From assembly GCF_022968825.1 (NCBI RefSeq), contig NZ_JALHKS010000001.1, forward strand, positions 186,001 to 250,000: 64,000 nt of DNA, read 5' to 3'. The notes under the pieces were generated by a model, which saw only the letters and a list, made by a program, of their open reading frames with translations, was not told the origin of the DNA and did no database searches. How positions within the stretch are numbered: position 1 is the first letter of the stretch; every line of letters begins with the position of its first letter. A program made the translations under genes and the position numbers. Shown one piece after another: positions 17,765-26,084 of the stretch. The stretch comes from Chryseobacterium salipaludis (GTDB lineage Bacteria > Bacteroidota > Bacteroidia > Flavobacteriales > Weeksellaceae).

Positions 17765-19672
17765 ATGAATAACTACACTGTTGAGAACCTGCCGGATTAC
17801 TTTAAACAATACAAGAAATCAATCAAGAACCCGAAAAAATTCTGGGACAAAATTGCTGATGAAAACTTTGTATGGTATCAGCGCTGGTCGAAAGTGGTGG
17901 ATTATGACATGGAAGAGGCCAAAATTAAATGGTTTAAAAATGCCAAGCTCAACATCACCAAAAACTGTATTGATCGGCATTTGCAGGAACGGGGAGATAA
18001 AACCGCCATTATTTTTGAGCCTAATAATCCTGAGGAAGCCGCACAGCATATTTCGTACAGTGAACTGCGCGAGCGTGTCTGCAAAATAGCGAACGTTTTG
18101 CGCGATCTGGGCGTAGAAAAAGGCGACCGAGTCTGCATCTATTTACCGATGATCCCGGAACTTGCCGTGACCATGCTGGCTTGTGCAAGACTTGGTGCGG
18201 TACATTCCGTGATATTCGCAGGATTTTCTGCTGCTGCAGTACGTTCGCGCGTGAATGACTGTGGCGCCAAACTCGTTATCTGCTCCGACGGAAGTTTCCG
18301 CGGATCAAAAGCCATTGATCTGAAAGGCATCATCGATGAAGCAGTAGACCAGTGTCCAAGCGTGGAAAAAGTGCTGGTCGTGAAACGCACGAATTCCGAT
18401 GTTGAAATGAAAGAAGGCCGCGACCTTTGGCTGGAACCCTTGTACAAAGCGGCGGCGCCTGATTTTATTTCTGTCATCATGGATGCGGAGGATCCATTGT
18501 TTATTTTATACACGTCGGGTTCCACCGGAAAACCGAAAGGAATGCTGCACACCACGGCCGGCTACATGGTGTACACTGCATATACTTTTAAAAATGTTTT
18601 TAATTATAGAGAAAATGACATTTATTGGTGTACGGCAGATATCGGCTGGATTACCGGCCATTCTTATATTTTGTATGGGCCGCTGCTCAACGGAGCAACA
18701 ACCGTCATCTTCGAGGGCGTGCCAACGTATCCTCAGCCCGACCGCTTCTGGGAAGTCATTGAAAAGCACAAAGTTACTCAGTTTTATACGGCGCCAACTG
18801 CCATCCGGTCCCTGGCCAAGGAATCCTACGAATGGGTGGAGAAACATGACCTGTCCAGTCTGCGGGTGATAGGATCCGTAGGCGAACCGATTAATGATGA
18901 AGCCTGGCACTGGTATAACGATCATGTAGGCAAGAAAAAATGCCCGATTGTCGATACATGGTGGCAAACCGAAACCGGCGGCATTATGATTTCGCCCATT
19001 CCTTTTGTAACACCGACAAAACCCACCTATGCGACCTTGCCGTTGCCGGGCATTCAACCAGTTTTAATGGATGACAAGCGAAATGAAATTACAGGCAATC
19101 AGGTGAACGGCAACCTTTGTATCCGCTTTCCGTGGCCGGGAATTGCACGCACCATCTGGGGTGACCACCAGCGTTATAAAGAAACTTACTTTACCGCATT
19201 TCCGGGCAAGTATTTTACGGGCGACGGTGCCCTGCGTGATGAAGTGGGCTATTACCGCATTACCGGCCGTGTGGATGATGTAATTATCGTTAGCGGTCAC
19301 AATCTGGGGACTGCGCCTATAGAGGACAGCATCAATCTGCATCCGGCTGTGGCAGAATCAGCCATTGTAGGTTTCCCGCACGAAGTGAAAGGAAGCGGGC
19401 TGTATGGCTATGTGATGCTGAAAGATACCGGTGAAAGCCGCGACAAGGATAACCTGCGCAAGGAAATTAATAACCTGATTGCCGAGACCGTCGGGCCGAT
19501 CGCGAAACTGGATAAGATTCAGTTTGTCTCTGCCTTGCCTAAAACGCGTTCCGGTAAAATTATGCGCCGTATTTTAAGAAAGATTGCCGAAGGTGATTTT
19601 GCCAATTTCGGCGACACGTCTACCCTCCTCAATCCCGAAATTGTAGAAGAAATTAAAGAAGAAAGAATTTAA
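17765..19672 (+). CDS. acs: Acetate--CoA ligase (acetyl-CoA synthetase)
   Basis: 635 residues, an ANL-superfamily adenylating enzyme. It has the P-loop-like YTSGSTGKPKGMLH motif, the WCTADIGWITGHSY core typical of Acs, DTWWQTETGG, and the C-terminal LPKTRSGKIMRRILRK motif. The Lys in that last motif (RSGK) is the catalytic residue that deacetylases control in this family. It makes acetyl-CoA from acetate, ATP and CoA. It is divergent from pyrB. The next gene starts only 9 bp after its stop, so acs and the polyketide/lipid cluster are likely cotranscribed and acs may feed that cluster with acetyl units. Confidence 0.97.
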   Translation: MNNYTVENLPDYFKQYKKSIKNPKKFWDKIADENFVWYQRWSKVVDYDMEEAKIKWFKNAKLNITKNCIDRHLQERGDKTAIIFEPNNPEEAAQHISYSELRERVCKIANVLRDLGVEKGDRVCIYLPMIPELAVTMLACARLGAVHSVIFAGFSAAAVRSRVNDCGAKLVICSDGSFRGSKAIDLKGIIDEAVDQCPSVEKVLVVKRTNSDVEMKEGRDLWLEPLYKAAAPDFISVIMDAEDPLFILYTSGSTGKPKGMLHTTAGYMVYTAYTFKNVFNYRENDIYWCTADIGWITGHSYILYGPLLNGATTVIFEGVPTYPQPDRFWEVIEKHKVTQFYTAPTAIRSLAKESYEWVEKHDLSSLRVIGSVGEPINDEAWHWYNDHVGKKKCPIVDTWWQTETGGIMISPIPFVTPTKPTYATLPLPGIQPVLMDDKRNEITGNQVNGNLCIRFPWPGIARTIWGDHQRYKETYFTAFPGKYFTGDGALRDEVGYYRITGRVDDVIIVSGHNLGTAPIEDSINLHPAVAESAIVGFPHEVKGSGLYGYVMLKDTGESRDKDNLRKEINNLIAETVGPIAKLDKIQFVSALPKTRSGKIMRRILRKIAEGDFANFGDTSTLLNPEIVEEIKEERI

Positions 19673-19681
19673 AATTTACTG

Positions 19682-20815
19682 TTGGACAATAAGCATTCAG
19701 ATATCATTATTGTTGGCGGCGGCCTGGCTGGTTTATCGGCTGCACTTCATTTGCTGCACGAGGGATTTAGCGTTACGGTGATAGAGAAAAGCAGCTATCC
19801 GAAACACAAGGTTTGCGGGGAATACATTTCCAATGAAGTGCGAAGTTATCTGCAGTGGCTCGGTCTTGATCTCGAGAAACTTCAGCCCGCTGAAATTACC
19901 CATCTGCAGTTTTCCTCTGTGTCCGGAAAAGTTTTACATACCCAACTTCCGCTGGGCGGATTCGGGGTAAGCCGCTACACGCTGGATGACGCCATGATGA
20001 AACTGGTGATTGCCCTAGGCGGAAAAATAGTGCAGGAACAGGTAAATGATATTATTTTTAATGATAATCTTTTTACCGTCAGAACAGATAAAAACAGTGA
20101 ACTAACGGCACCGGTAGTTCTGGGCGCTTTCGGAAAGCGTTCCAATCTGGATATTAAGCTGGAGCGTACTTTTCTAAAGAAGAGAACACCCTGGCTGGCG
20201 GTCAAAGCGCACTATCAGGGAGATTTTGATGATACACTTGTCGGGTTGCATAATTTTCGCGGCGGCTACTGCGGGGTTTCTAAGTTGGAAAATGGCAGCA
20301 TAAACATCTGTTATCTTGCGCACTTTAAAACTTTTAAAAAGCATAAAAACATTGAAGAATACCAGCGCGAAATTGTGAGACAGAATCCGCATTTAGATAA
20401 AATTTTAAGTGGCGCTACGATGATATTTGAAAAACCTTTAACCATCAGTCAGATTTCTTTTGCACCGAAAACGGCGGTAGAAAATCATGTCCTGATGATG
20501 GGCGATACGGCAGGGCTAATTCATCCGCTGTGCGGCAACGGAATGGCCATGGCGATCCACAGTGCGAAACTGGCGGCAGAAGGAGTTACTTTATTTTTAC
20601 ATAAAAAAATCAACCGCGCACAGCTGGAAAATGAGTATCGAAAACAATGGCAGAAGAACTTTAGCGGAAGACTCAGCATTGGCAGACTTTTAGGTAAACT
20701 GCTGGAGCATGCAAAACTGGCGGAAATTGGCACCGGCCTGCTCATGTACTTTCCTTTTCTGCTGCCGATTATTATCCGTAAGACCCACGGAAAAGAACTT
20801 ATGACGACAAAATAA
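19682..20815 (+). CDS. FAD-dependent oxidoreductase, geranylgeranyl-reductase/hydroxylase family
   Basis: 377 residues if the TTG at 19682 is the start; no ATG is near, and the FAD motif begins only a few residues later. The N-terminal Rossmann motif IIIVGGGLAGLSAALHLL is followed by VIEKSSYPKHKVCGEYIS, a typical group A flavoprotein lead. The second FAD motif is MGDTAGLIHPLCGNGMAMAI. A hydrophobic segment near the C-terminus (TGLLMYFPFLLPIIIR) suggests membrane attachment. The family includes ring hydroxylases and C=C reductases acting on lipids and quinones. It is first of seven tightly packed genes with a type III PKS and probably tailors its product. Confidence 0.85.
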   Translation: MDNKHSDIIIVGGGLAGLSAALHLLHEGFSVTVIEKSSYPKHKVCGEYISNEVRSYLQWLGLDLEKLQPAEITHLQFSSVSGKVLHTQLPLGGFGVSRYTLDDAMMKLVIALGGKIVQEQVNDIIFNDNLFTVRTDKNSELTAPVVLGAFGKRSNLDIKLERTFLKKRTPWLAVKAHYQGDFDDTLVGLHNFRGGYCGVSKLENGSINICYLAHFKTFKKHKNIEEYQREIVRQNPHLDKILSGATMIFEKPLTISQISFAPKTAVENHVLMMGDTAGLIHPLCGNGMAMAIHSAKLAAEGVTLFLHKKINRAQLENEYRKQWQKNFSGRLSIGRLLGKLLEHAKLAEIGTGLLMYFPFLLPIIIRKTHGKELMTTK

Positions 20816-21529
20816 ATGGCTATAGATACCACATACCGGACGGATGCAGAGGAAATGATGGATGATTTTTCTCTGAGTAACGAGGCACTGATTACAGCGC
20901 TGAAGGATTTGTCGCGTATTAATTTATTGCTTGGCGGCAACAATGTAACGAGAAATGGTGTTTCGCAACTCTTGAAAAATATTCCGCGCGACCGGGAAAT
21001 CACCATTGTGGATTTTGGTTGTGGCGGCGGTGACCTGCTGCGGATGCTGGCAGATTTTGGCCAAAAAAATAACAGAAAATTCCGGCTTATTGGTGTAGAT
21101 GCCAACGAAACAGCCATTCGGTTTGCAAGTGAGCATTCGGTCGCTTATCCTAACATAGAATTTATCACGGCTGATATTTTTAAAACTGATTTTAAGGGTT
21201 TTCAGCCGGACATCGCTTTGCTTACCCTCACGCTTCATCATTTCAAAGATCCGGACATCAAAGAAATTCTGCATATTTTGTATGAAGACGTTTCGTTGGG
21301 AATCGTGGTAAATGATTTGCAGCGCAGCAAGCTCGCCTACCGTTTGTTTCAGGCAGTTATTTTTGTCTTCAGGCTGGAACCGATGACCGCGCAGGATGGA
21401 TTAATTTCCATACTAAGAGGATTTAAACGAAAAGATTTAGTACTTTTCTCTAAGCAATTAAACTTTACCAAATACCGCATCCGCTGGAAATGGGCCTTCC
21501 GATGGCAGTGGATTATACATAAATTATGA
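20816..21529 (+). CDS. Class I SAM-dependent methyltransferase
   Basis: 237 residues with the glycine-rich SAM motif VDFGCGGGDLLRML (motif I), the acidic residue in LIGVDANETAI, and LLTLTLHHF as post-motif I/IV. The start codon abuts the stop of the FAD gene, and the last four bases overlap the start of the type III PKS gene (ATGA), so translation is coupled. It probably O- or C-methylates the polyketide. It is a different fold class from the isoprenylcysteine-methyltransferase-like SrsB/BpsB of known phenolic-lipid operons. Confidence 0.88.
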   Translation: MAIDTTYRTDAEEMMDDFSLSNEALITALKDLSRINLLLGGNNVTRNGVSQLLKNIPRDREITIVDFGCGGGDLLRMLADFGQKNNRKFRLIGVDANETAIRFASEHSVAYPNIEFITADIFKTDFKGFQPDIALLTLTLHHFKDPDIKEILHILYEDVSLGIVVNDLQRSKLAYRLFQAVIFVFRLEPMTAQDGLISILRGFKRKDLVLFSKQLNFTKYRIRWKWAFRWQWIIHKL

Positions 21530-22578
21530 GTGTACACATTGTAACGGTGGCCAGGCAGCTGCCACAATATTCCCGTAAAACAGCCGACATTCTTCCCTTC
21601 GTTGACCAGTGGATGGAAGACCAAGACAGTCGTTTTGCACGAAAAGTAAAAAAGATTTTCGAAGGTGCAGCGGTGGATCAGCGCTACTCTATTATGGATC
21701 CTGTCGAAGTATTTACGGCAACTTCCTTTGAAGAGAAAAATGATATTTACACCCGGGAAGCCATCATCATCGGTGAGCAGGTCTTAAGCAAAGCACTGGC
21801 CAAGGCCGGCTGGGAACCTGAGTCGCTGGATTATATTATCACGGTAAGCTGCACGGGAATTATGATTCCCTCACTGGACGCCTATCTGATTAACCGTTTA
21901 AAATTAAAACAAGATATCGTGCGCCTGCCCGTGACCGAAATGGGTTGTGCGGCGGGTGTTTCCGGTACTATTTACGCCAAAAACTTTCTGAAAGCAAATC
22001 CCGGCAAGCGTGCCGCGGTTATTGCCGTGGAAAGCCCCACCGCTACTTTTCAGCTGCAGGACTACTCAATGGCAAATGTGGTAAGCGCTGCTATCTTCGG
22101 GGATGGTGCTGCCTGTATGCTCCTGTCTTCTGAAGAAGAGGCCCCCGGTCCGGAAATTATAGCGGAAGGCATGTATCATTTTTATGAAAATGATCATATG
22201 ATGGGTTTTAAATTGACCAATTCCGGTCTGCAGATGGTACTGGATGTGGAAGTTCCGGAAACCATTGCCGAACATTTCCCACAAATTTTGCATCCCTTCC
22301 TGGCTGCGGAAGATTTAGGCATTGCTGATATTGACCACCTTATTTTTCATCCGGGCGGAAAGAAAATAGTCCAGATGGTGGAAGATTTATTCTCAGATTT
22401 AGGAAAGGATATTAACATGACCAAAGAAGTACTGCGGCTCTACGGAAATATGTCCAGCGCCACCGTGCTATATGTATTGGAAGAAATTATGAAGCAGAAT
22501 CCGCAGAAAGGCGAGCGCGGTTTAATGCTGAGTTTCGGGCCGGGCTTTTCTGCCCAACGTGTTTTACTGCAATGGTAG
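21526..22578 (+). CDS. Type III polyketide synthase (chalcone synthase/alkylpyrone-alkylresorcinol synthase family)
   Basis: 350 residues, standard for homodimeric type III PKS. The Cys-His-Asn triad is intact: C141 in VTEMGCAAGVSG, H275 in HLIFHPGGKKIV and N308 in YGNMSSATVLYVL. FGDGAACMLL and the C-terminal MLSFGPGFSAQRVLLQW (GFGPG-like loop) are further family marks. It would extend an acyl starter with malonyl-CoA and cyclise the chain to a pyrone or resorcinol. The neighbouring ACP, KS, DH and ER genes suggest a dedicated ACP-bound fatty starter. Ring type and chain length cannot be read from the sequence. Confidence 0.95.
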   Translation: MSVHIVTVARQLPQYSRKTADILPFVDQWMEDQDSRFARKVKKIFEGAAVDQRYSIMDPVEVFTATSFEEKNDIYTREAIIIGEQVLSKALAKAGWEPESLDYIITVSCTGIMIPSLDAYLINRLKLKQDIVRLPVTEMGCAAGVSGTIYAKNFLKANPGKRAAVIAVESPTATFQLQDYSMANVVSAAIFGDGAACMLLSSEEEAPGPEIIAEGMYHFYENDHMMGFKLTNSGLQMVLDVEVPETIAEHFPQILHPFLAAEDLGIADIDHLIFHPGGKKIVQMVEDLFSDLGKDINMTKEVLRLYGNMSSATVLYVLEEIMKQNPQKGERGLMLSFGPGFSAQRVLLQW

Positions 22579-23360
22579 AAACTAAAGTAAAAAATCAGTG
22601 GGCTTTGATACTGGGCGGCAGTTCCGGTCTGGGCCTGGCATCTGCACAAAAACTGGCCTTGGACGGTTTTAATATCATCATCGTTCACCGAAGTCCGAGA
22701 AGTGAATTAACCGGAATTCAAAAAGAGTTTGATGTCATCCGCGAAACCGGTGTGCGCCTGATTGATTTCAATAAAGATGCTTTAAATCCCGTGCAGCAGA
22801 AAAACATGGTCGCGGAAATACGAAAAGAAATAAGTCCCGAAGGAAAAATCAACTGTTTGTTACACAGCATTGCCAAAGGAAATCTGAAACCGATGACCGG
22901 TGAAAATGCACTGAGCACGGAAGATTTTTCAATTACGCTACAAGCGATGGCGACCAGTTTTTATGATTGGGTGCGGCTGATTTTCAACGCCAGTTTATTC
23001 GCCAAAGATGCGCGTTTGCTCGCTTTTACCAGCGAAGGAAGTTCACGCCCGTTACCAAATTATGCTGCCATTTCAGCAGCAAAAGCGGCGCTGGAAGCGA
23101 TGATGCGAAGTATCGCCCTGGAATTTGCTCCGTACGGAATCCGCGCGAATTGTATTCAAGCGGGCGTAACGGATACACGGTCGCTGCAAATGATCCCGGG
23201 CAGCGACGAAATAAAAAAAGTAACCCAAAACCGAAATCCGTTTGGCCGCTTAACCACACCGCGGGATGTGGCCGACGTGGTCAGTCTCTTGTGCCTTCCG
23301 GAAGCAGCCTGGATCAACGGCTGCGTTATTCCTGTAGACGGCGGCGAACATCTTTGCTAA
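22572..23360 (+). CDS. SDR resembling trans-2-enoyl-ACP reductase (FabI/FabL type)
   Basis: 262 residues, a Rossmann SDR with NAD(P)-binding GGSSGLGLASAQKL. The active-site spacing is Y164-x6-K171 (NYAAISAAKAAL) rather than the usual SDR YxxxK. Y-x6-K together with the strand LLHSIAKGN (compare FabI VHSIAFA) marks enoyl-ACP reductases. The C-terminal VIPVDGGEHL ending fits as well. It overlaps the PKS gene by 7 bp. It would saturate the enoyl-ACP made by the dehydratase next door. A ketoreductase role is possible but fits the motif spacing less well. Confidence 0.82.
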   Translation: MVETKVKNQWALILGGSSGLGLASAQKLALDGFNIIIVHRSPRSELTGIQKEFDVIRETGVRLIDFNKDALNPVQQKNMVAEIRKEISPEGKINCLLHSIAKGNLKPMTGENALSTEDFSITLQAMATSFYDWVRLIFNASLFAKDARLLAFTSEGSSRPLPNYAAISAAKAALEAMMRSIALEFAPYGIRANCIQAGVTDTRSLQMIPGSDEIKKVTQNRNPFGRLTTPRDVADVVSLLCLPEAAWINGCVIPVDGGEHLC

Positions 23361-23361
23361 T

Positions 23362-23793
23362 ATGAAATTTCAGGAAATCATACATCATCTTCCATACACC
23401 GAACCATTCCTGTTTGTAGACGAACTGCTGCACGTGGATGAAAACGGTGCAAAGGGAACTTATACTTTCAGCGAAACACTCGACTTTTATAAAGGTCATT
23501 TTAAAAACTTTCCCGTAACACCCGGGGTTATCCTGACCGAAACCATGGCGCAGATTGGCGTGGTTTGCTTAGGGTTATATTTATGTAAAGATGACCTTAA
23601 TTCAAAAAAATCGATCGGTCTGACCTCTACGCAGATTGAATTTTTAAAACCTGTATTTCCCGGTGAAAAAGTAACCGTGGAATCCAGAAAAGTTTACTTC
23701 AGATTTAACAAACTTAAATGCGCTGTAACCATGTATAACGCGGCCGGCGAAGTGGTATGTGAAGGAGAAATCGCCGGAATTATCGCAAATTAA
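23362..23793 (+). CDS. 3-hydroxyacyl-ACP dehydratase (FabZ-like hotdog protein)
   Basis: 143 residues with the FabZ-type active site: H46 in KGHFKNFPVTPGVIL and E60 in TETMAQIG. The N-terminal HHLPYTEPFLFVDELL matches FabZ's LPHRYPFLLVD pattern. It dehydrates 3-hydroxyacyl-ACP to the trans-2-enoyl-ACP. There is one base between the SDR stop and this start. Being the cluster's own copy, it is likely dedicated to the polyketide/lipid product rather than housekeeping fatty-acid synthesis. Confidence 0.9.
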   Translation: MKFQEIIHHLPYTEPFLFVDELLHVDENGAKGTYTFSETLDFYKGHFKNFPVTPGVILTETMAQIGVVCLGLYLCKDDLNSKKSIGLTSTQIEFLKPVFPGEKVTVESRKVYFRFNKLKCAVTMYNAAGEVVCEGEIAGIIAN

Positions 23794-23801
23794 ATGCCAG
23801 C

Positions 23802-25082
23802 ATGATGAATAAGAGACGTGTAGTGATTACGGGAATGGGCGCTGTTTCACCAAATGGTGTGGGACTGGCCGCCTTCGAAGAAGCAATAAAAAAAGGCACC
23901 TCGGGAATACGTTTCGACCAGCAATTGGCGGACCTGCAATTCTCCTGTCAGGTGGCCGGTACGCCGCAGCTTTCGGAGGAGATCATCAATCATTATTTTA
24001 CGCCACTGGAACTTCGGAATTTCGCTGCAACCGGCATCATGTATGGTGTGATTGCCGGAATGGAAGCCTGGAATGATGCGAGCTTAACGATCGCTGGTTC
24101 GGAGGAACCGCTGTGGCACGCCGGAACCATTTTCGGCGCGGGTACCTCGGGGATCGAAAAGTTTCGCGAGAGTATTTATAAGATTGATGATCTGCAAACC
24201 CGGCGGCTGGGCAGTACGGCCGTTGTACAAACCATGAACAGTGGTGTTTCGGCATTTTTGGCAGGCAAACTTGGTTTGGGCAATATGGTAACCACCAATT
24301 CGTCTGCCTGCACTACCGGCACCGAAAGTATACTGATGGCTTTTGACCGAATTCAGTCCGGGCAGGCAGATATCATGCTGGCGGGCAGCACGAGTGACTC
24401 CGGTCCGTATATCTGGGGCGGCTTCGATGCGATGAAGGTATGTAATTTTAAGAGCAATGAGGAGCCCGAAGCGGCATCGCGGCCGATGAGTGCGTCTGCC
24501 GCCGGATTTATACCGGGCAGCGGTGCGGGTGCTTTGGTCCTGGAAGAACTGGAGAGCGCCGTGGCGCGCGGGGTGAGGATTTATGCCGAAGTTCTCGGCG
24601 GAAATATTAATAACGGCGGTCAGCGCGGTGGAGGTACCATGACGGCGCCTAATTCTACCGCGGTACAGAAATCTGTACAAGATGCGCTTAAGGCAGCAGG
24701 TGTGCACGCACAGGATATTGATTACATCAGCGGGCATCTCACCGCAACTTCCAAAGACAGTACTGAGATTCAGAATCTCGCAACCGCTCTGAAACGGAAG
24801 GGCAAGAACTTTCCTTATATCAACTCGCTGAAATCGCTCACGGGCCATTGCCTGTCCGCGGCCGGCAGCCTGGAAAGTGTGGCAGCAGTACTCCAGCTGG
24901 CCCATGATTATGTAGCACCCAATCGTAACTGCCAGGATTTGCATCCGGAAATCGCAGAAACTATTGACCGCACCTGCGTGCCGCAAGAACTGATCCGAAC
25001 CTCTATTGAAATAGCCGCAAAAGTGAGTTTTGGTTTTGGCGATGTGAACGGATGTGTTATCTTTAAAAAATATAAAAACTAA
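23802..25082 (+). CDS. Beta-ketoacyl-ACP synthase II-like (FabF family)
   Basis: 426 residues. The Cys-His-His triad of elongating condensing enzymes is complete: C170 in TNSSACTTGTESI, H312 in ISGHLTATSKDS and H349 in KSLTGHCLSAAGS. The first His box reads GHLTAT instead of the FabF-typical AHGTST, a divergence seen in secondary-metabolism KS proteins. Two adjacent ATG codons could start it; the first is used. It condenses malonyl-ACP with an acyl-ACP and so lengthens the starter made by this module. It lies 8 bp after the dehydratase gene. Confidence 0.93.
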   Translation: MMNKRRVVITGMGAVSPNGVGLAAFEEAIKKGTSGIRFDQQLADLQFSCQVAGTPQLSEEIINHYFTPLELRNFAATGIMYGVIAGMEAWNDASLTIAGSEEPLWHAGTIFGAGTSGIEKFRESIYKIDDLQTRRLGSTAVVQTMNSGVSAFLAGKLGLGNMVTTNSSACTTGTESILMAFDRIQSGQADIMLAGSTSDSGPYIWGGFDAMKVCNFKSNEEPEAASRPMSASAAGFIPGSGAGALVLEELESAVARGVRIYAEVLGGNINNGGQRGGGTMTAPNSTAVQKSVQDALKAAGVHAQDIDYISGHLTATSKDSTEIQNLATALKRKGKNFPYINSLKSLTGHCLSAAGSLESVAAVLQLAHDYVAPNRNCQDLHPEIAETIDRTCVPQELIRTSIEIAAKVSFGFGDVNGCVIFKKYKN

Positions 25083-25088
25083 AAAATT

Positions 25089-25343
25089 ATGAGCCGGGAA
25101 GATTATCTGTTGCAGCTGAAAGAAATTGTGAAGCCGTATGTGAAAGAGGAACAGGCACTGGAAAACCTGAATGAAAATACCGATTTCCTGAATGACCTGA
25201 ACATCAATTCTGCCAATCTCGTGGACGTGGTGCTGGACGTGGAGGAAGCTTTCGACATTGAGATAGACAATGAATCCATGGAGACGATGCGTGATGTGAA
25301 ATCAGCACTCGCGGTGATAGAAGCAAAATTAAATTCAAAATAA
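25089..25343 (+). CDS. Acyl carrier protein
   Basis: 84 residues, acidic and helical. The phosphopantetheine attachment Ser is S41 in FLNDLNINSANLVDVVLDVEE, where DLNINS stands in for the usual DLGxDS. The spacing after the Ser (a helix with repeated Val/Leu) is typical. It carries the growing acyl chain for KS, DH and ER. It is the last gene of the cluster, 6 bp after the KS gene. No phosphopantetheinyl transferase or malonyl transferase is nearby, so the housekeeping enzymes must supply these steps. Confidence 0.92.
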   Translation: MSREDYLLQLKEIVKPYVKEEQALENLNENTDFLNDLNINSANLVDVVLDVEEAFDIEIDNESMETMRDVKSALAVIEAKLNSK

Positions 25344-25405
25344 AAAACCGTTAAGCCGTGCGGGTAAAATCCTGAATTGATAAGTGAAGGCTCCGCGCGA
25401 AGTTG

Positions 25406-25413: not shown

Positions 25414-25430
25414 CAAAAAATATTTTTAAT

Positions 25431-26084
25431 ATGAAATTTTTTATTGACACAGCGAATCTGGACCAAATCCGTGAAGCACAGGACCTGGGAATTCTGGATG
25501 GAGTAACCACCAATCCCTCCCTGATGGCGAAAGAAGGCATCAGCGGAAAAGAGGCTATTCTGAATCACTATAAAACAATCTGCGAAATCGTGGATGGTGA
25601 TATCTCCGCAGAAGTACTGAGCACGACCTATGATGAAATGATTGCAGAGGGCGAAGAACTGGCCGCTATTCATCCTAATATCGTTGTGAAAATCCCAATG
25701 ATTAAAGACGGAATCAAAGCGTTAAAATATTTCTCGGACAAAGGAATTAAGACTAACTGTACCCTGATCTTCTCTGCAGGTCAGGCGCTTTTAGCGGCAA
25801 AGGCAGGTGCAACCTATGTGTCGCCTTTCCTGGGAAGACTGGATGATATCTCGGTAGACGGCATTAATCTGATTGAAGAAATCCGGGTAATCTTCGATAA
25901 CTATCTATTTGATACCGAAATTCTGGCAGCGTCAATCCGTTCTCCTATGCATATTATCAACTGTGCGAAAATTGGGGCAGATGTGGTAACCTCTCCGCTG
26001 GCTTCTATTTTGAACCTGCTGAACCACCCGCTGACCGACAAAGGTTTGGAACAATTCGTGGCTGATGCCAAGAAAATGGGATAA
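25431..26084 (+). CDS. Transaldolase / fructose-6-phosphate aldolase (FSA-type)
   Basis: 217 residues from the ATG at 25431 ([10 protein letters not shown]). An open reading frame extends further upstream but runs through the promoter. This is the short FSA/TalC subfamily: [13 protein letters not shown], the Schiff-base Lys in [26 protein letters not shown] and [13 protein letters not shown] are diagnostic. It is a TIM-barrel class I aldolase of the pentose phosphate pathway. Members are annotated as either transaldolase or FSA, and sequence alone does not decide. A terminator follows. Confidence 0.93.

What the first reader, a model, noticed from the sequence alone, without database searches (positions are those of the whole stretch)
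19682..25343. Type III polyketide synthase cluster with its own fatty-acid-synthase module and tailoring enzymes
Seven tightly packed plus-strand genes, with overlaps or gaps of 0-8 bp, encode a FAD oxidoreductase, a class I methyltransferase, a type III PKS, a Y-x6-K enoyl-reductase-like SDR, a FabZ-like dehydratase, a FabF-like KS and an ACP. The active sites needed for PKS (C141/H275/N308), KS (C170/H312/H349), dehydratase (H46/E60) and ACP (S41) are present. Known phenolic-lipid operons such as srsABC combine a type III PKS, a methyltransferase and a flavin hydroxylase but use primary-metabolism starters. Azotobacter ars genes use type I FAS to feed type III PKS. A dedicated type II module feeding a type III PKS together with srs-like tailoring is, as far as I know, uncharacterised. 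Predicted product: a methylated and oxidised alkyl-resorcinol, -pyrone or -quinone membrane lipid.
Basis: partly seen in the sequence, partly recalled or inferred. Interest (0 to 1): 0.8.

Follow-up and report, generated by a model that had tools for sequence, protein, structure and literature searches.

The report
Seven-gene lipid factory in Kaistella-like bacterium
Seven adjacent genes, inherited together in many flavobacteria, look like a kit that builds its own fatty chain on a private carrier protein and hands it to a ring-forming enzyme to make an unusual methylated lipid; its product is not known to us.

Summary
In detail: a FAD enzyme, a methyltransferase (MT), a type III PKS, a FabL-like reductase (ER), a FabZ-like dehydratase (DH), a FabF-like synthase (KS) and an ACP form one tight + strand block with intact catalytic residues. 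It behaves as a cassette. The core FAD-MT-PKS-DH-KS-ACP, same order and strand, is in 46 of 46 orthologous loci from two genome draws; 79 of 80 named loci have all six, the miss (L110) being cut by a contig end. All 33 phylum-draw genomes with this PKS have the KS. Of nine genus-mates without the PKS, five have acs followed by tal, in one 69 bp apart. None of 34 distant Bacteroidota type III PKS loci carries KS/DH/ACP; 15 are PKS-MT-FAD triads. No locus has its own ketoreductase candidate, and the ER is missing from 20 of 46. Related modules sit beside DarB or in polysaccharide-type loci, suggesting a portable acyl-ACP supplier. The PKS has clade-only changes (F228, P171, D240), so a resorcinol or quinone product is plausible but not shown. 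New variant of a known kind.

The parts
19682..20815 (+). FAD-dependent oxidoreductase (superfamily of geranylgeranyl reductases, flavin halogenases and aromatic hydroxylases), TTG start
   Evidence: Pfam FAD-binding models; TIGR02032 below cut-off; AlphaFold2 model pLDDT 91.1, Foldseek matches to halogenases, 3-hydroxybenzoate 6-hydroxylase, PqsL and a GGR-like protein; 30-45% identical to FAD proteins of 10 triad loci
20816..21529 (+). class I SAM methyltransferase (NF004851/PRK06202-like, below cut-off)
   Evidence: MTs of 15 triad loci match its profile at 128-302 bits
21526..22578 (+). type III polyketide synthase; catalytic C141/H275/N308; clade-specific T19, V50, P171, A173, F228, D240, S336, Q344
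   Evidence: best PDB sequence match M. tuberculosis Pks11, E 5e-49
22572..23360 (+). FabL-like SDR, Y164-x6-K171, putative enoyl-ACP reductase (optional in relatives)
   Evidence: B. subtilis enoyl-ACP reductase 3oic the only PDB match at E <= 1e-25
23362..23793 (+). FabZ-like hot-dog dehydratase, H46/E60
23802..25082 (+). FabF-like ketosynthase, C170/H312/H349; 31% identical to the other KS of this genome
25089..25343 (+). acyl carrier protein, attachment site S41
17765..19672 (+). flank, not counted as part: acetate-CoA ligase acs, left border of the block
   Evidence: TIGR02188 above cut-off; followed by tal in five block-free genus-mates
25422..26084 (+). flank, not counted as part: transaldolase-like tal, right border (start taken at an internal ATG; the listed ORF begins at 25377; name recalled from the sequence, no family scan run)

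Best explanation
A single biosynthetic cassette for a phenolic lipid. KS, DH and ACP, here with a FabL-like ER, elongate an acyl chain on a dedicated ACP; ketoreduction, malonyl loading and chain start are borrowed from housekeeping fatty-acid synthesis. The acyl-ACP is handed to the type III PKS, which adds malonyl units and closes a ring, most likely a resorcinol-type ring; the methyltransferase and FAD enzyme then methylate and oxidise it, possibly to a hydroquinone or quinone. Shown: the genes, intact active sites, inheritance as one block, absence of KS/DH/ACP beside the 34 distant type III PKSs compared, homology of MT and FAD to triad operons, and reuse of related modules with other partners. 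Inferred: ACP-to-PKS transfer, chain length and saturation, ring type, methylation site, oxidation and biological role. Rough odds: module feeds the PKS 0.85; resorcinol-type ring 0.6; quinone end product 0.4.
For: Six-gene core, same order and strand, in 46 of 46 drawn loci and in 79 of 80 named loci once L116, where MT and PKS share one reading frame, is counted. KS in all 33 phylum-draw genomes with the PKS; in the family draw KS and ER occur in the same 16 of 148 genomes, 15 of them with the PKS. acs is followed by tal in five of nine block-free genus-mates. Module-bearing PKSs form one side of one branch of the PKS tree (SH-aLRT 100, one change). Fifteen triads have PKS and MT, with FAD strong in 11 and weak in 4, and no KS/DH/ACP. 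Related modules lie near DarB-family genes in L281 and L282 (635 and 615 bits, cut-off 550) and in a glycosyltransferase locus in L231, which fits acyl supply. Direct acyl-ACP transfer to type III PKSs is reported for ArsB/ArsC and for GCS/SCO7671 (PMC6274091, passages) and use of ACP-bound substrates for CylI (PMC8086630, passages).
Against: No ketoreductase candidate in any of 46 drawn blocks. ER missing from 20 of 46 draws with no close relative elsewhere in those genomes. The PKS lacks the Trp of 33 of 34 comparison enzymes and has Pro where 34 of 34 have Cys, so its product may differ from triad alkylresorcinols. The FAD model does not separate hydroxylase, halogenase and reductase functions. 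The KS also occurs without this PKS in G110 and in five phylum genomes, so it is not tied to it. No expression or chemical data.
Confidence: 0.6

Rival explanations
1. Same supply logic, different ring: the re-shaped type III PKS makes an alkylpyrone, alkylresorcylic acid or another polyketide that MT and FAD decorate, so 'alkylresorcinol or quinone' is wrong.
For: F228, P171, A173 and D240 are fixed in 47 of 47 module-clade rows and rare or absent in 34 comparison rows. Trp281 in ArsB against Gly in ArsC governs resorcinol against pyrone formation (PMC6274091, passage); that F228 is the same column is my inference, since no call returned ArsB or ArsC. The best PDB match, Pks11, is named an alpha-pyrone enzyme, although it has Trp at this column.
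Against: Planctomycetota MT-oxidoreductase-PKS operons were shown to make alkylresorcinols, one with an added C-methyl group (PMC10896814, abstract and passages). Phe is still bulky and aromatic. The clade sits on a long branch (1.24), so some fixed differences are expected by drift alone.
Confidence: 0.25
2. ER-less versions make an unsaturated or polyenyl chain, and the ER of this lineage makes it saturated, so the family yields lipids that differ in saturation.
For: ER in 26 of 46 draws; in the 20 genomes without it the best SDR listed is at most 35% identical, while block ERs measured by BLAST are 58-70% identical to the window's. ER presence changes at least 4 times on the PKS tree.
Against: A housekeeping enoyl reductase could serve, as a housekeeping ketoreductase must; no chemistry is at hand.
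Confidence: 0.3
3. KS/DH/ER/ACP make a separate lipid and are only operon neighbours of an ordinary PKS-MT-FAD set that uses housekeeping acyl-CoA.
For: Related modules exist without this PKS; triads lack the module.
Against: KS/DH/ACP are missing from none of the 46 drawn loci and, of 80 named loci, only from L110, which the contig end cuts; loci with inserted genes (L073, L074, L077) keep them nearby.
Confidence: 0.1

Closest known systems
srsABC / hidABC / pkqABC-type operons (type III PKS, methyltransferase, oxidoreductase)
   Same: PKS with homologous MT and FAD oxidoreductase side by side; 15 of 34 distant Bacteroidota loci look like this, FAD homology strong in 11 of the 15
   Different: No KS/DH/ACP module in those 15; their PKS has Trp where this has Phe in 15 of 15; gene order here FAD-MT-PKS, there PKS-MT-FAD or FAD-PKS-MT
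Azotobacter vinelandii ars system
   Same: A fatty-acid synthase encoded with the type III PKS passes acyl chains from its ACP to it (PMC6274091, passage)
   Different: There a type I FAS (title of a reference; multidomain nature recalled); here separate type II-like proteins without a ketoreductase, plus MT and FAD
Cylindrocyclophane CylI and M. tuberculosis Pks11
   Same: CylI receives its chain from a dedicated PKS (PMC8086630, passages); Pks11 is the nearest solved sequence
   Different: The supplier of CylI is a free ACP plus type I PKSs
Dialkylresorcinol / flexirubin (DarB) clusters
   Same: Resorcinol-forming enzyme near ER, DH, KS, ACP and PPTase genes: L281 and L282 carry a related module near DarB
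   Different: This genome has no DarB above cut-off and one further match to this KS; DarB-family proteins are not type III PKSs (recalled)
bpsAB-type operons (name recalled)
   Same: Type III PKS followed by a methyltransferase gene in sister loci
   Different: There an ICMT-family methyltransferase (PF04140, scanned for L191 only; L192, L194, L196 similar by eye); here a class I enzyme, FAD and the module

Membership tests
srs/hid/pkq-type phenolic-lipid operon | type III PKS with Cys-His-Asn active site | tested here: met
   127 of 127 rows
srs/hid/pkq-type phenolic-lipid operon | adjacent homologous class I MT and FAD oxidoreductase | tested here: met
   46 of 46 draws; FAD 30-45% identical to FADs of 10 triads
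srs/hid/pkq-type phenolic-lipid operon | Trp at the cyclisation position (ArsB W281; column inferred) | tested here: not met
   Phe in 47 of 47; Trp in 33 of 34 comparison rows
srs/hid/pkq-type phenolic-lipid operon | product is a methylated alkylresorcinol or alkylquinone | not testable with these tools
   needs mass spectrometry
Azotobacter ars system | multidomain type I FAS beside the PKS | tested here: not met
   separate KS, DH, ER and ACP proteins
Azotobacter ars system | PKS accepts acyl-ACP from the partner synthase | not testable with these tools
   needs enzymology
complete type II FAS/PKS module | KS, DH and ACP with intact active sites | tested here: met
complete type II FAS/PKS module | own ketoreductase | tested here: not met
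   one SDR (the ER) in the block here; one or none in each of 46 draws; one FabG above TIGR01830 cut-off elsewhere in the genome
dialkylresorcinol / flexirubin cluster | DarB in the genome | tested here: not met
   no match above the NF053539 cut-off
bpsAB-type operon | ICMT-family methyltransferase | tested here: not met
   MT matches Methyltransf_25 and similar models

The most novel reading that the evidence does not exclude
Bacteroidota carry a portable acyl-ACP supply cassette (DH-KS-ACP, often with ER and phosphopantetheinyl transferase) that has been plugged into different lipid end-users; here it serves a type III PKS whose active-site pocket was re-shaped in the same lineage to take the private acyl-ACP and make a phenolic or pyrone lipid of a class not yet described, and gain or loss of the single ER gene sets whether the chain is saturated or polyenyl.
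Probability: 0.35. Interest if true: 0.75.

Novelty: new variant of a known kind. Interest (0 to 1): 0.6.

Why it matters
Type III PKS clusters made up 10.74% of gene clusters in a survey of Flavobacteriaceae (PMC10734526, passage), yet in the searches named I found no described product for this one. In other phyla such lipids enter cyst membranes (PMC4824345, start of abstract in a listing) or act as alternative respiratory quinones (PMC9927152, passages). A discrete supply module makes ACP-to-type III PKS transfer, and the effect of natural ER gain or loss on chain saturation, directly testable in laboratory strains such as Flavobacterium johnsoniae, which has an ER-less locus here (L140).

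Tried and rejected
Cuniculene, recalled as a possible hybrid, was looked up; the listing ties it to Aquimarina and I did not pursue it or compare clusters. Koreenceine was checked in passages of PMC6498172: type II PKS systems of a Pseudomonas, not this. acs as a pathway gene: 9 bp upstream here, but the distance to the FAD reading frame in relatives runs from about 0 to over 6 kb and 28 of 46 draws have no acs in the stretch scanned, so I treat it as a flank. Halogenase or geranylgeranyl-reductase function of the FAD protein: motifs recalled for those families (WxWxIP, YxWxFP-like) match 0 of 127 rows, weak evidence against both. The ArsB Trp281 column could not be tied to an ArsB or ArsC sequence. 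Promoter and terminator scans gave counts near the shuffled mean (22 against 15.8, sd 4.6; 13 against 10.3, sd 3.0) and are not used.

Limits. The 34 distant loci come from 33 of the 140 phylum-draw genomes with a weaker PKS match and were picked by me down the listed table, not drawn at random; the fetched stretches are 8-15 kb, so a distant module would be missed. Match lists were cut by the tools; the named set is the best 80 of 534 and leans to close relatives. The eight clade-specific positions were picked by a filter (fixed in 47 rows, another residue in at least 75% of 34) after seeing F228; the clade has a long branch. Trees are quick searches with open forks and flagged long branches; in the KS tree the G110 row falls among the type III PKS-module rows and those rows need 2 changes. 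In 4 of 15 triads (L205, L207, L209, L210) the FAD profile match is weak, 39-48 bits. The first count gave 78 of 80 named loci; L116 had been marked as lacking MT because MT and PKS share one open frame there. Gene names such as glyoxalase-like or polysaccharide-type not backed by a call are by eye. MIBiG and antiSMASH were not at hand. That nothing is in print rests on searches in an open-licence library that lacks most subscription journals.
Full report
What is there. The window belongs to a 2.53 Mb genome in 22 contigs; the nearest named relatives by PKS are Kaistella species, 84% identity for K. solincola. Between acs and tal lie seven + strand genes with junctions from a 7 bp overlap to an 8 bp gap. 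Pfam places them as FAD oxidoreductase, class I methyltransferase, type III PKS, SDR of the enoyl-ACP-reductase type, FabA/FabZ-like dehydratase, ketosynthase and ACP; the best NCBIfam models are below their cut-offs throughout. The nearest solved sequences are M. tuberculosis Pks11 for the PKS (5e-49), FabF enzymes for the KS, and B. subtilis enoyl-ACP reductase for the SDR.

More than chance adjacency. In the family draw 15 of 148 genomes have a PKS ortholog at 78% identity or more, 12 of 21 in the window's genus; the other listed matches are at 32% or less (list cut). In the phylum draw 173 of 395 genomes match at E <= 1e-25, with a gap between 33 genomes at 68% or more and the other listed ones at 38% or less (list cut). 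I fetched all 46 ortholog loci other than the window's own. All 46 carry FAD, MT, PKS, DH, KS and ACP on one strand in that order; ER is in 26, a phosphopantetheinyl transferase (PPTase) in 27, the latter only outside the window's family. PPTase identity is Pfam-confirmed for L140 and L231. In the named set all six are in 79 of 80: L110 is cut by a contig end 71 bp after the PKS; L116 has MT and PKS in one open frame and was first counted as a miss. ER is in 15 and PPTase in 65 of these 80. Searching with the KS, all 33 phylum-draw genomes with the PKS have it, plus 5 others of 395. In the family draw KS and ER occur in the same 16 of 148 genomes: the 15 with the PKS and G110.

Present or absent as a block. 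I looked at acs in the nine genus-mates without the PKS. No block gene matched at E <= 1e-10 in the 5-13 kb fetched around acs. In five of nine acs is followed by tal: 69 bp from the acs match end in L250, about 0.8 kb in L243-L245, 2.5 kb in L246. In the other four tal was not in the stretch; one of these (L249) ends near acs.

Comparison enzymes. Of 34 distant type III PKS loci from 33 of the remaining 140 genomes, none has a KS, DH or ACP match; 15 are triads with MT (128-302 bits) and FAD (338-483 bits in 11, 39-48 bits in 4); 19 have neither, some with an ICMT-like gene next door. On the PKS tree the module-bearing rows are one side of one branch (SH-aLRT 100, one change), and ER needs four changes inside it. 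FADs of 10 triads are 30-45% identical to the window's, with 33 invariant columns over 38 rows.

Reuse of the module. G110, same genus and no PKS ortholog, has ACP-ER-DH-KS-PPTase (KS 55% identical) after four Pfam-confirmed glycosyltransferase genes and an EpsG-family gene, with a hexapeptide-repeat protein behind it. The five extra phylum genomes have KS at 43-51% identity. L281 and L282 carry ER-DH-KS-ACP-PPTase, divergent from and two ORFs away from a DarB-family gene (635 and 615 bits, cut-off 550). L283 has ER-DH-KS-ACP with a GNAT-like and a GT2 gene and, about 4 kb off, a BioF/serine-palmitoyltransferase-type enzyme below cut-off; L284 and L285 have DH-KS-ACP with GNAT-like and GT2 genes and no ER. 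This favours a supplier of acyl-ACP with exchangeable users; that is inference from gene context.

The PKS itself. Catalytic residues are invariant. Against the 34 distant PKSs eight positions are fixed in 47 module-clade rows and different in nearly all others: T19, V50, P171 (Cys in 34 of 34), A173, F228 (Trp in 33 of 34), D240 (Ser in 33 of 34), S336, Q344 (Glu in 34 of 34). By recalled chalcone-synthase numbering P171 and F228 are cavity positions; F228 is probably the ArsB Trp281 column, which governs resorcinol against pyrone formation (PMC6274091, passage), but ArsB/ArsC were not returned by any search. The branch is long, so some such differences are expected.

What is missing. No ketoreductase candidate: each of 46 drawn blocks holds one SDR match (26) or none (20). 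The genome has one FabG above cut-off elsewhere. In the 20 ER-less genomes 18 have SDR matches at E <= 1e-15, none above 35% identity. The genome has one match to the PPTase family, one further match to this KS, at 31%, and no DarB above cut-off.

The FAD protein. The model is confident (pLDDT 91.1) and matches halogenases, 3-hydroxybenzoate 6-hydroxylase, PqsL and a GGR-like protein with similar scores, so the fold does not decide its reaction.

Comparison with print. Planctomycetota and picocyanobacterial MT-oxidoreductase-PKS operons make alkylresorcinols with C- or O-methylation (PMC10896814, abstract and passages). Actinobacterial PKS-MT-oxidoreductase operons make polyketide quinones (PMC9927152, passages). 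ArsB/ArsC take chains from a FAS ACP, CylI from type I PKSs (PMC6274091, PMC8086630, passages). Surveys count type III PKS clusters in Flavobacteriaceae without describing them in the passages I saw (PMC10734526, PMC7440613). A discrete type II-like module feeding a type III PKS was not evident in the listings; I did not open most of the papers listed.

Verdict. Observation confirmed, interpretation partly supported, new variant of a known kind. The firm points are the strict co-inheritance, the block-wise presence or absence, the optional ER and PPTase, the reuse of related modules with other partners, and the clade-specific residues of the PKS.

Noticed in passing
L231:8903-12857: In genus-mate G110, which lacks the PKS, ACP-ER-DH-KS-PPTase genes follow four glycosyltransferase genes and an EpsG-family gene, with a hexapeptide-repeat protein behind them.
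   Followed up: partly
L281:7077-13411 and L282:7092-13272: Related ER-DH-KS-ACP-PPTase modules lie divergent from DarB-family dialkylresorcinol genes.
   Followed up: partly
L283:2480-12875; L284:6621-10871; L285:6282-10646: Related KS modules with GNAT-like and GT2 genes, in L283 near a BioF/serine-palmitoyltransferase-type enzyme; possibly a glycolipid pathway.
   Followed up: partly
L073:10888-11973; L074:10897-11979; L077:10887-11969: Frigoriflavimonas and Halpernia loci have an NADH:flavin oxidoreductase (Old Yellow Enzyme) gene on the opposite strand between ER and DH (Pfam PF00724 for L074; the other two by eye).
   Followed up: partly
L072:11764-12141: A YycE/glyoxalase-type gene lies between KS and ACP in Flavobacterium caeni.
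   Followed up: no
L116:301-1962: In one Flavobacterium MAG, MT and type III PKS share a single open frame; natural fusion or assembly error not decided.
   Followed up: no
L281:4309-5124: A second SDR lies about 3 kb from the DarB-associated module, a possible ketoreductase for it.
   Followed up: no
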